Assembly (NCBI GenBank): GCA_026397035.1
Contig: JAPLVQ010000034.1
Location: 1,932-15,876, forward strand
Length of the DNA: 13,945 nt
Origin: Candidatus Iainarchaeum sp.
Lineage (GTDB): Archaea > Iainarchaeota > Iainarchaeia > Iainarchaeales > JAAZKV01
Direction of reading: 5' to 3'
The notes below the pieces were generated by a model. It was not told the DNA's origin, did no database searches, and worked only from the letters and a program-made list of their open reading frames with translations. Within the stretch, counting starts at the first letter, position 1; each line of letters begins with the position of its first letter. Shown here in pieces: positions 7,976 to 10,408 of this stretch. The position numbers were made by a program, and so were the translations under genes.

Positions 7976-7992
7976 ATTTTGGATAGTAAAAA

Positions 7993-9102
7993 TTAGCTAC
8001 AAACTTCCAAAACATCAAGTAAAGTGCAGATACAGTGTGCCCCTGTGAGCGAAGAAATACTTGGTTTTGTTTTTCCACCATCTCCCGAAATGAATTCTTT
8101 TACATAAGTTCCGTGGGATGTGAGGAGCTCAAGAACAAAAGTTCTTTTTGTTATACTCCTCGCATGAATAATTGTTACTTCTTTCGCTCTCTCTAAATTT
8201 GCTCTTCTCTTCTCAACTCGGGTTGGAGTGAATTGGAAAACTAAAAGCTTTTCTTCAATTGGAAGTGAGTTTAGATCAATATCTTTATCTGCAGAAACGA
8301 GAGCCGCATAAATTTTGTTATGAGGGGAATCCTTAAGCGGAGAAACATCATCAATCGAACAAATTTTTAGAGAATTAATTGAAGCCTTGCCTTTGAACTG
8401 AATATTGAACTCTTCTTTAAGTAATTTTAAATCTGCACCCCTTTTTTTTGGCATTAAGAGTTCAGCAACAAAAGGCCTTCCATTCCCAAGCATTAAAACA
8501 TCCATATCTTCTCTTCCAGCACCATGCAAAATCAATAACGCTGCTCCAAAAGCAGGAACAAAAATCTTGGCAATGAACTGCTCTACACTCTCTTCACAAA
8601 AATGCCCCATGCCTTTACAATACCAACAACCCTTTCCCCTGCACTTATTGCAAAAATATTCAGTCTGAGCAATTTCCCTTGAGAACTTACAATACCTCCC
8701 ACTCACAAAAACAGATTTTATCCTTACAAGAACAAGTTTCTTATTAAAATCAATCAAAAAATCTGCATGGGGCGCGGAAAAATCATCCCTCTTTTTTAAA
8801 GAATCCTTAATTTTTAAAATCAAAGCGGTTTGAATAGAAGTTTTTAACTTTTTTTTCTCTTCTTCCGCCATTTCGAGAGGCCAGGAGACTCCAAGCTTGA
8901 AAGAATCAAACTCAATTTCCTTTGAAAGAGAAACTATTTTCTCAAAAAGCAATTCCGCAAGAAAATCATCAAAAACCCCTTCAAAATCAAACCCAATTGA
9001 GTAATGATGCTCCGCAGATTTTATTTTGTCCCTAAGTTGAAACTCATGAAGAAGTGCACGATAATTCTCAATGCTGCCAGTAATTGAAACCATCAAACCC
9101 AC
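7993..9102 (-). CDS. pus10: tRNA pseudouridine synthase Pus10
   Basis: A 369-residue Pus10, the archaeal enzyme that isomerises U54 and U55 in the T-loop of tRNA. Diagnostic stretches are RYCKFSREIAQT (137-147), the HGAGREDMDVLMLGNGRPF segment (193-211) with catalytic aspartate presumably Asp199 in the R-x-D motif, and GTYVKEFISGDGGKTKPSISS near the C-terminus. An internal zinc-type motif CNKC-4-CWYC (C151, C154, C159, C162) is present. The N-terminal CxxC zinc module that usually precedes the THUMP-like domain of archaeal Pus10 is absent, the protein opening directly with MGLMVSITGS. GTG at 9102 sits about 28 bases after a TATA-like element (9125-9136, minus); ATG at 9093 is an equally plausible start. 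The function is firm; the exact N-terminus is not. Confidence 0.92.
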   Translation of the reverse strand: MGLMVSITGSIENYRALLHEFQLRDKIKSAEHHYSIGFDFEGVFDDFLAELLFEKIVSLSKEIEFDSFKLGVSWPLEMAEEEKKKLKTSIQTALILKIKDSLKKRDDFSAPHADFLIDFNKKLVLVRIKSVFVSGRYCKFSREIAQTEYFCNKCRGKGCWYCKGMGHFCEESVEQFIAKIFVPAFGAALLILHGAGREDMDVLMLGNGRPFVAELLMPKKRGADLKLLKEEFNIQFKGKASINSLKICSIDDVSPLKDSPHNKIYAALVSADKDIDLNSLPIEEKLLVFQFTPTRVEKRRANLERAKEVTIIHARSITKRTFVLELLTSHGTYVKEFISGDGGKTKPSISSLTGAHCICTLLDVLEVCS

Positions 9103-9875: not shown

Positions 9876-10082
9876 ATGGGGAAACAATATAGTGTTTTAA
9901 TTGAGAGGGATGAGAACGGCTTTTTAGTGGCGGATGTTCCTGAACTTGAGGGTTGCCACACACAGGCTAAAACTATGGATGAGCTAATTAAAAGGATTAA
10001 AGAAGTTATTGCCCTTTGCAGGGATGAGACTGTTTCTAAGACAAAATTTGTTGGAGTTCAAATGGTGGAGCTAAATGCCTAA
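9876..10082 (+). CDS. hicB: HicB-family antitoxin
   Basis: A 68-residue protein with the compact HicB fold: a first strand YSVLIERDENGFLVADVPEL, the GCHTQAKTMDEL turn and helix that typify the family, and a helix IKRIKEVIALC. HicB antitoxins cap the partially degraded RNase H-like fold over the HicA mRNA interferase and neutralise it. No ribbon-helix-helix or helix-turn-helix domain follows, so this is the short single-domain form, in which the pair must rely on another arrangement for autoregulation. The ATG at 9876 follows TTAGTGAT at three bases. Its stop overlaps the hicA start by 8 bp (ATG at 10075), showing translational coupling in a hicB-hicA order. With the toxin gene broken, this gene may now be under relaxed selection, yet it remains intact. 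Confidence 0.88.
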   Translation: MGKQYSVLIERDENGFLVADVPELEGCHTQAKTMDELIKRIKEVIALCRDETVSKTKFVGVQMVELNA

Positions 10083-10408
10083 CTTAGTTAAACCAAAAGA
10101 TCTGATTAAAGTAATTGAAAAACTTGGCTTTAGGGAAACTATAGTAAAAACGCCCATGTTTTTGAACTTTGTTGGTGCGTTTTACTATCTAGCCATCAAG
10201 GGATTGATGTTCAATTACATACCTTAATGGCTATAGAATTAACGGGAGTCATTACCGATTTGAGCACTTGGATGGAAGGAAAACAACAATTCCTGTTCAT
10301 GGTAAAGAACCAATTGGAACTGGGTTGTTAAACAAGATAATTAAAAAGGATATAAAAATAACAAAGAGTGAATTTGAAGAACTAATGAAGCAACTAATTC
10401 TTTTTTAA
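10075..10408 (+). pseudogene. hicA: hicA toxin gene interrupted by a 94-bp segment
   Basis: The frame from ATG 10075 reads MPNLVKPKDLIKVIEKLGFR then ET, a typical HicA N-terminus, before entering unrelated sequence and stopping at 10225-10227. The rest of HicA resumes in another frame at 10235: RINGSHYRFEHLDGRKTT, then IPVHGKEPIGTG and a terminal helix ending at TAA 10406-10408. Deleting exactly 94 bases (10141-10234) rejoins the parts as LGFRETRINGSHYRF, a 79-residue protein of normal HicA length with the family spacing of six residues between GF and GSH and the catalytic histidine kept. HicA proteins are double-stranded-RNA-binding-fold mRNA interferases. As it stands the gene cannot make toxin unless the segment is removed from DNA or RNA. 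The remainder shows no other damage, so the insertion appears recent. Confidence 0.85.
10141..10234. mobile_element. 94-bp double-hairpin insertion in hicA
   Basis: The segment whose removal restores hicA consists almost entirely of two adjacent imperfect palindromes. Hairpin A: ATAGTAAAA (10141-10149) pairs with TTTTACTAT (10180-10188), then A10150 bulges and CGC pairs with GCG. Hairpin B: TAGCCATCAAGG (10190-10201) pairs with CCTTAATGGCTA (10222-10233) with one mismatch, and inside it ATTGA (10203-10207) pairs with TCAAT (10211-10215). The junction is ambiguous only over a TA dinucleotide (10140-10141 versus 10234-10235), which may be a TA duplication; CTATAG also occurs at both edges (10139-10144, 10231-10236). 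It encodes no protein. Two hairpin ends without a gene resemble a minimal non-autonomous element, for example the end palindromes of the IS200/IS605 group or a MITE inserting at TA. The family is inferred, not recognised. Confidence 0.65.

What the first reader, a model, noticed from the sequence alone, without database searches (positions are those of the whole stretch)
10141..10234. A 94-bp double-hairpin element caught inside a hicA toxin gene
Deleting exactly 94 bases restores a complete 79-residue HicA with canonical GF-x6-GSH spacing, so the insertion boundaries are defined to within two bases. The removed segment is not random: it is two back-to-back imperfect palindromes (10141-10188 with a bulged A, and 10190-10233) separated by one base. 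It has no coding capacity, and its junction shows only a TA repeat. A pair of hairpins with no gene looks like the ends of an IS200/IS605-type element joined together (a palindrome-associated non-autonomous element) or a TA-targeting MITE. It may be a new small element family in this lineage, caught at base resolution.
Basis: partly seen in the sequence, partly recalled or inferred. Interest (0 to 1): 0.78.

Follow-up and report, generated by a model that had tools for sequence, protein, structure and literature searches.

The report
Double-hairpin archaeal MITE inside hicA
A toxin gene in a small archaeon is split by a 92-base hitchhiking DNA element made of two hairpins; the element belongs to a family scattered through this archaeal order and is most likely moved by an IS630-type transposase.

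Summary
The insert is a mobile element with four copies (94-100% identical) in its own genome, with the same ends and unrelated 60-nt flanks. A covariance model from these four matches 14 of 143 related archaeal genomes at E<=0.01, all of the same order; the complete genome archaeon GW2011_AR10 holds 41 doublets. A DNA pattern scanned over 84,980 species gave 49 stretches, all archaeal. In AR10 one repeated context occurs with the element (5 loci) and without it (3 loci): the empty site has one TA, the filled sites TA-element-TA. In 17 of 17 HicA homologs matching both window pieces the net insertion comes out at 94 nt: a 92-nt element plus one TA. IS200/IS605 ends are therefore rejected. IS630-type transposons in relatives end in a sequence like each hairpin's outer arm plus loop (28 of 31 nt at best), but lack the fold-back arm. 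Verdict: a MITE family of IS630-type transposons whose two ends have each become a self-pairing, compensatorily changing hairpin. No intact IS630 transposase was found in the 14 carriers; the relatives found are decayed (G032) or split over two frames (G058, G201).

The parts
10142..10233 (+). the mobile element itself (TAG...CTA, 92 nt)
   Evidence: 4 copies in the own genome, family in the order, empty site, letters
10140..10141 (.). left TA of the target duplication
   Evidence: net length 94 = element + TA; TA duplication seen in AR10
10234..10235 (.). right TA of the target duplication
   Evidence: as above
10140..10185 (+). hairpin module 1 (TATA, 5' arm 10144-10153 with an extra A, loop, 3' arm 10177-10185)
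   Evidence: model R2, 40.3 bits; fold
10192..10235 (-). hairpin module 2, the same module inverted (arms 10192-10200 and 10223-10231, TATA)
   Evidence: model R2, 43.8 bits
10162..10167 (+). loop 1 motif TTGAAC, shared with some IS630-type ends
   Evidence: present in 38 of 42 copies; IS630 ends
10209..10214 (-). loop 2 motif (GTTCAA on +), complementary to loop 1
   Evidence: present in 35 of 42 copies
10075..10140 (+). hicA, part before the insertion
   Evidence: PF07927 positions 2-15, weak alone, E 0.099; homologs
10247..10408 (+). hicA, part after the insertion
   Evidence: PF07927 positions 21-55, E 8.1e-8; found in 35 of 143 genomes, own included
9876..10082 (+). hicB-like antitoxin gene, uninterrupted
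   Evidence: PF15919 E 1.8e-7

Best explanation
The insert is a non-autonomous DNA transposon (MITE) of an IS630-type (Tc1/mariner-like) insertion sequence. Shown: it is multicopy, has fixed ends, inserts at TA and doubles it, and carries no ORF of 60 aa. Its two halves are one module in inverted orientation: TATA, a 9-nt arm, a loop of about 22 nt with TTGAAC, and the arm's complement. The first 31 nt of the module resemble the ends of IS630-type elements in related archaea. Inferred: an IS630-type transposase acting in trans recognised these ends and inserted the element at the TA in hicA, splitting the gene. The fold-back arm is an addition not seen in the IS ends; it is kept by compensatory change, either because a hairpin in DNA or RNA helps the element or because template switching keeps repairing palindromes. 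The damage to hicA is read as a by-product that leaves hicB open.
For: Own genome: 4 copies at 94-100% identity with unrelated 60-nt flanks. Relatives: E<=0.01 in 14 of 143 genomes, all same order. AR10: 41 +/- doublets among 114 non-overlapping hairpins, 37 of 41 being 91-95 nt long. Stem pairs: 8 of 9 compensatory, covariation 0.584 against 0.185 shuffled and at most 0.106 slid, on rows chosen for <=1 stem mismatch. Unselected: 78 of 84 halves have <=1 mismatch. Empty site: 33 nt at 3 loci against 124-126 nt at 5 loci. Net 94 nt in hicA. IS630 link: a hairpin-like end at 32.4 bits on the right of an IS630-type gene in G032; the best score in the 121-kb comparison set outside its two IS630-type loci is 9.7, and the shuffled maximum 9.2. 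Those two IS630-type loci, put in that set by accident, gave hits at both flanks of their gene (16.8 and 10.2; 5.9 and 5.7). Their genes carry DDE_3 and HTH_33.
Against: No intact IS630 transposase was found in the 14 carrier genomes: PF13358 0 of 14; NF033545 none over cut-off, best 98.1 of 100 bits, a relic lacking the DDE half in G048, the next best 52.6 and lower. AR10 is complete by its single contig, so its copies look like orphans today. The G032 element is decayed (frameshift and stops) and its left end scores low (13.2 bits, E 0.56; not among the four best matrix hits). The G058 ends (5.9, 5.7) and the G223 end (4.6) do not exceed background on score; only their position supports them. 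None of nine IS ends folds back (best arm mismatch 3-6 of 9), so the step from IS end to hairpin module is unexplained. The five filled AR10 loci probably descend from one insertion, so the empty-site evidence is one event plus hicA and one nested case read by eye.
Confidence: 0.85

Rival explanations
1. IS200/IS605-derived palindrome-associated element (or REPIN/RAYT-like), moved as single strands by a Y1 HUH transposase that reads the hairpins.
For: Two hairpins in a gene-free unit; REPINs are inverted doublets of one module (passages of PMC3116915). Y1 matches occur in 8 of 13 carriers tested besides the own genome.
Against: TA duplicated; net 94 rather than 92 in hicA; no Y1 match in AR10 or in G000; of 13 Y1 loci one lies near a copy and none is bracketed by the hairpins; ends resemble IS630-type elements instead.
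Confidence: 0.05
2. A MITE moved by another TA-targeting DDE family, such as the IS427 group of IS5.
For: DDE_Tnp_1 matches in 10 of 14 carriers, 9 over the cut-off; TA targeting of that group is recalled, not tested here.
Against: Of 25 DDE_Tnp_1 loci searched only the one beside an AR10 remnant has clear family hairpins, on one side and about 1.2 kb away (weak hits at E 0.1-0.84 in three others); the G000 C59 element has unrelated ends GTTCTGTAGAAATCC.
Confidence: 0.07
3. The element is kept for a function of its RNA, as a terminator, mRNA stabiliser or small RNA; mobility is incidental.
For: Strong compensatory change; complementary loops, at least 6 of 7 positions in 39 of 42 copies, G-U counted; 31 of 42 copies between ORFs by a crude ORF test.
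Against: No Rfam match at E<=1 in the window; the 60-nt flanks of the four G000 copies are unrelated; the inverted module makes loop complementarity automatic; palindrome repair by template switching can also produce compensatory changes.
Confidence: 0.1
4. Assembly artefact or part of a real gene.
For: The assembly is a 188-contig MAG.
Against: Model matches in the single-contig genome AR10 and 12 other genomes besides the own one; 17 of 17 homologs lack the stretch.
Confidence: 0.01

Closest known systems
RUP of Streptococcus pneumoniae with IS630-Spn1
   Same: 107-bp repeat with ends like those of an IS630 element and insertion at TA (passages of PMC2229807)
   Different: Here each end is itself a hairpin; archaeal host; no intact IS630 found in the carrier genomes
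Correia/NEMIS elements of Neisseria
   Same: About 107/155 bp, TA at the termini and target duplication (passages of PMC2229807); TATAG...CTATA ends are recalled
   Different: 24-bp terminal inverted repeats that pair with each other (recalled), not two separate hairpins
REPINs / BIMEs with RAYT
   Same: Two copies of one module in inverted orientation, compensatory changes, extragenic (passages of PMC3116915)
   Different: In REPINs the two halves pair with each other; here each half pairs with itself. RAYT is a tyrosine transposase; here TA duplication and IS630-like ends
Mitochondrial double-hairpin elements of fungi
   Same: Mobile double hairpin, by name and architecture (recalled; only a search listing seen)
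   Different: No sequence relation or target tested
Archaeal MITEs of Sulfolobus, Halobacterium, Haloquadratum, Desulfurococcus
   Same: Non-autonomous archaeal elements (passages of PMC10969869)
   Different: That review's main text has 0 occurrences of DPANN

Membership tests
MITE | short, without a gene, multicopy, fixed ends in unrelated flanks | tested here: met
MITE | target-site duplication shown by an empty site | tested here: met
   3 empty and 5 filled copies of one AR10 context, TA; consistent
MITE | ends shared with an autonomous element | tested here: met
   up to 28 of 31 nt with the G032 IS630-type element, itself decayed; weaker for the others (21-25 of 31 with the best half)
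IS630-type origin | TA target | tested here: met
IS630-type origin | HTH + DDE_3 transposase between matching ends | tested here: met
   L271 and L274 DDE_3 6.3e-19 and 4.1e-24, HTH_33; L272 DDE_3 1.6e-9 in one of two pieces. The two halves lie in different frames in L271 and L274
IS630-type origin | intact transposase in a carrier genome | tested here: not met
   none of 14 carriers
IS630-type origin | transposase moves the element | not testable with these tools
   needs an assay
IS200/IS605 (PATE) | insertion without target duplication | tested here: not met
IS200/IS605 (PATE) | Y1 transposase with matching ends | tested here: not met
REPIN | two inverted modules that pair with each other | tested here: not met
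   arms of the two halves differ in 42 of 42 copies, by 2 of 9 in 26 of them; each half pairs with itself
Rfam RNA family | match to a described RNA | tested here: not met
   0 matches at E<=1 in the window

The most novel reading that the evidence does not exclude
The fold-back arms are not decoration. In this lineage IS630-type ends have been rebuilt into self-pairing hairpins that the transposition process itself requires, for example through extruded ends or single-stranded, replication-linked targeting, with complementary loops (TTGAAC/GTTCAA) bringing the two ends together. That would be a DDE transposon system reading DNA hairpins the way REPIN/RAYT or IS200/IS605 does.
Probability: 0.15. 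Interest if true: 0.75.

Novelty: new variant of a known kind. Interest (0 to 1): 0.55.

Why it matters
It gives an order of small-genome archaea (many of the records titled Diapherotrites; a DPANN group by recall) a base-resolution mobile repeat family with a census in one single-contig genome (41 doublets in 1.24 Mb), a demonstrated TA target and a probable parent transposon. It shows IS630-type MITEs taking a form that resembles REPIN-like doublets, and it raises a testable question: why would a DDE transposon's ends turn into hairpins that keep pairing while their letters change? It is also an apparent natural knock-out of a toxin gene whose antitoxin partner stays open.

Tried and rejected
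IS200/IS605: rejected on TA duplication, net length, no Y1 match in AR10 and G000, and Y1 loci not bracketed by hairpins. IS5-type DDE_Tnp_1: clear hairpins at 1 of 25 loci, about 1.2 kb away and on one side; different ends in G000 C59. PF13586: matches at E<=0.1 in 8 of 14 genomes, one over cut-off; the loci of that call were not scanned for hairpins. Viral contigs: 0 hits for two patterns. A 12-base end pattern in the own genome was noise: 230/203 matches against 308/257 for the reversed control. Long autonomous element in AR10: among the unpaired hairpins only one +/- pair lies 0.2-6 kb apart, and it spans complete copies. An IS630-model hit in G042 (L250) showed none of the end motifs and only an E 2.4 model hit. 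Pfam on the two pieces of the ORF interrupted by the L249 copy: nothing. PADLOC on the hicB and second hicA piece: nothing. Two weak R1 matches outside the order, G118 (E 0.083) and G120 (E 0.8), were not followed. Papers: the rows listed by searches name none on repeats of this kind in Diapherotrites; PMC2229807, PMC3116915 and PMC10969869 were opened, as passages only.

A control that went another way: L271 and L274 were put in the comparison set by mistake and supplied four of its eight top scores, the two best among them. I report them as support, but they were not planned as a test.

Dropped rows: 42 copies were put in A3; left out were partial and overlapping hits, two G021 copies repeating a context already in (L066, L072), and diverged or truncated ones (such as L079, L080, L094). 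For A4, of 84 halves those with >=2 stem mismatches and duplicates were left out (64 kept).

Full report
WHAT WAS CLAIMED AND WHAT IS THERE. The hairpins are real and far more stable than shuffles. The gene is a HicA relative: the piece after the insert matches PF07927 strongly (8.1e-08) and the piece before it weakly on its own (0.099), at successive parts of the profile. An uninterrupted hicB-like gene lies just upstream (9876-10082, PF15919). Instead I aligned each piece to homologs: of 19 loci examined, 17 gave a protein matching both pieces, and in 17 of 17 exactly four residues lie between them when the matches are extended without gaps to the piece ends. The window has 106 nt there, so 94 nt are extra.

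COPIES. The element has four copies in the own genome (G000, a 1.29 Mb, 188-contig, 77.4% complete assembly): C31 (this one), C118, C135 and C101, at 94-100% identity, with ends TATAG/TATAA...CTATAG and unrelated 60-nt flanks. By plain DNA search none of 52 relatives had a match. A covariance model from the four (R1) changed that: 14 of 143 genomes match at E<=0.01, all of the same order, several with many matches; palindromic copies are often hit on both strands, and some matches (G042, G060, G066) are short. Two more genomes, outside the order, match weakly (E 0.083 and 0.8). The copies read out share one plan although their letters differ.

ANATOMY. Both halves are the same module in opposite orientation: TATA, a 9-nt arm (often GCAAAnnGC), a loop of about 22 nt with TTGAAC near its middle, then the complement of the arm. 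On 64 distinct halves chosen for at most one mismatch, 8 of 9 stem pairs change on both sides and still pair; the covariation score is 0.584, against 0.185 for shuffles and 0.067-0.106 for slid partners. Without that selection 78 of 84 halves have at most one mismatch. The arms of the two halves differ from each other in 42 of 42 copies, so each half is built to pair with itself. The loops are complementary in 39 of 42 copies at six or more of seven positions, G-U counted; because the module is inverted this follows from conservation of the loop and is not independent proof of loop pairing. The window copy carries one extra A in an oligo-A stretch of the first arm.

SPREAD. A single-module model (R2) counts 134 matches in G021, 21 in G000 and 3 in G004 at E<=1. 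From 117 listed G021 matches I counted 114 non-overlapping hairpins and 41 doublets, 37 of them 91-95 nt. That scan of one genome for each of 84,980 species gave 49 stretches, all in archaeal records: 18 titled Diapherotrites, 14 AR10, 9 Woesearchaeota, 3 Thaumarchaeota, 3 'archaeon isolate E14', 2 Micrarchaeota; these are the records' own titles, and records very near the window's genome may be left out of that scan. Viral contigs gave none. That Diapherotrites are a DPANN group is recalled; the taxonomy look-up gave names without a lineage.

EMPTY SITE AND TARGET. Among the fetched AR10 loci one repeated outer sequence occurs at 5 places with a copy inside and at 3 without. The same stretch measures 124-126 nt and 33 nt; the empty form reads ...CGC-TA-GTC... 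and the filled form ...CGC-TA-[TAGC...GCTA]-TA-GTC.... The five filled loci probably stem from one insertion later copied as a composite. A second nested case (L070) fits the same rule by eye. So the element enters a TA and doubles it. In hicA this predicts element plus TA = 94 nt, which is what the homologs show; insertion beside a TATA without duplication would give 92.

WHO MOVED IT. I searched the 14 carriers for transposases. Y1: no match in G000; matches in 8 of the other 13, AR10 not among them. IS630 DDE_3: 0 of 14. DDE_Tnp_1: matches in 10 of 14 but not bracketed by these ends. The full-length IS630 model gave nothing over its cut-off and many weak hits, but just below the cut-off a relic in G048 that keeps only the DNA-binding half. 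Using that relic as query over 241 genomes gave 14 with matches, G048 included. One, G032 of the same order, has family hairpin hits on both sides of the gene, about 1.13 kb apart: right end E 6.8e-5, left end weak at 0.56. A 31-nt weight matrix from 54 MITE halves scores the G032 right end at 32.4 bits, with 28 of 31 letters equal to one MITE half; its left end is not among the four best matrix hits. The same matrix marks both sides of IS630-type genes in G201 (16.8, 10.2) and, weakly, G058 (5.9, 5.7), and one side in G048 (11.6), G186 (14.1) and G223 (4.6). The next best score elsewhere in the 121-kb comparison set is 9.7, so G058 and G223 count by position only. DDE_3 and HTH domains confirm G201, G058 and, in pieces, G032. 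The G032 gene is broken by a frameshift and stops; in G201 and G058 the HTH and DDE halves lie in different frames (86 nt apart and overlapping by 19 nt), which may be decay or, in G058, frameshifted expression (a possibility from recall). None of nine IS ends has the fold-back arm. G032 and G058 had no R1 match; G186, G201 and G223 were not part of that search.

READING. The insert is best described as a MITE of an IS630-type transposon whose two ends have each acquired an inverted copy of the outer arm. Multicopy state, ends, TA duplication and pairing are shown. The parent family is strongly indicated by the ends and by the TA target. Movement by that enzyme, the origin of the fold-back and its purpose are inference. 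Two explanations for the pairing remain open: selection for a hairpin, or mechanical repair of near-palindromes.

LIMITS. Most genomes used are incomplete assemblies. AR10, a single contig, has no IS630 gene by the models used (only sub-cut-off hits of at most 14.5 bits), so its copies look orphaned. Statistics on pairs use related copies. Gene context was judged with simple ORFs (31 of 42 copies between ORFs of at least 100 aa). Statements that the family is undescribed rest on the rows listed by searches of an open-access library.

Noticed in passing
L114, L115, L116, L117, L118, L120, L122 (G000 contigs C82, C84, C133, C122, C125, C4, C59): A longer subfamily, about 200 bp where complete, in the window's own genome: similar outer hairpins with several short inner hairpins in between; some copies are cut by contig ends or contain N.
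   Followed up: partly
L124, L125, L126 (G021): Another longer AR10 subfamily with one good family hairpin followed by a shared tail.
   Followed up: no
L249:1175-1484 (G048): A family copy at 1270-1362 splits an ORF that looks like an IS110 transposase (recalled resemblance; the pieces gave no Pfam hit), 67 nt from an IS630 relic.
   Followed up: partly
window 7982-8015, - strand: A 34-nt stretch is 79% identical to part of the element (E 0.002) but is not found by model R2; relic or chance.
   Followed up: no
L245:4315-5294 (G000:C59): An IS5-like transposase (303 aa, DDE_Tnp_1) with inverted ends GTTCTGTAGAAATCC, running to the end of a contig.
   Followed up: partly
G004 contigs C1, C28, C30, C32, C35, C45, C47, C63, C82: Ten DDE_Tnp_1 fragments of 53-54 aa, most of them near contig ends, suggesting a multicopy insertion sequence that breaks the assembly.
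   Followed up: no
L121:940-1051 (G000:C96): A weak family-like end (R2 21.3 bits at 1029-1051) lies about 15 nt from a tRNA-Met gene at 940-1014.
   Followed up: partly
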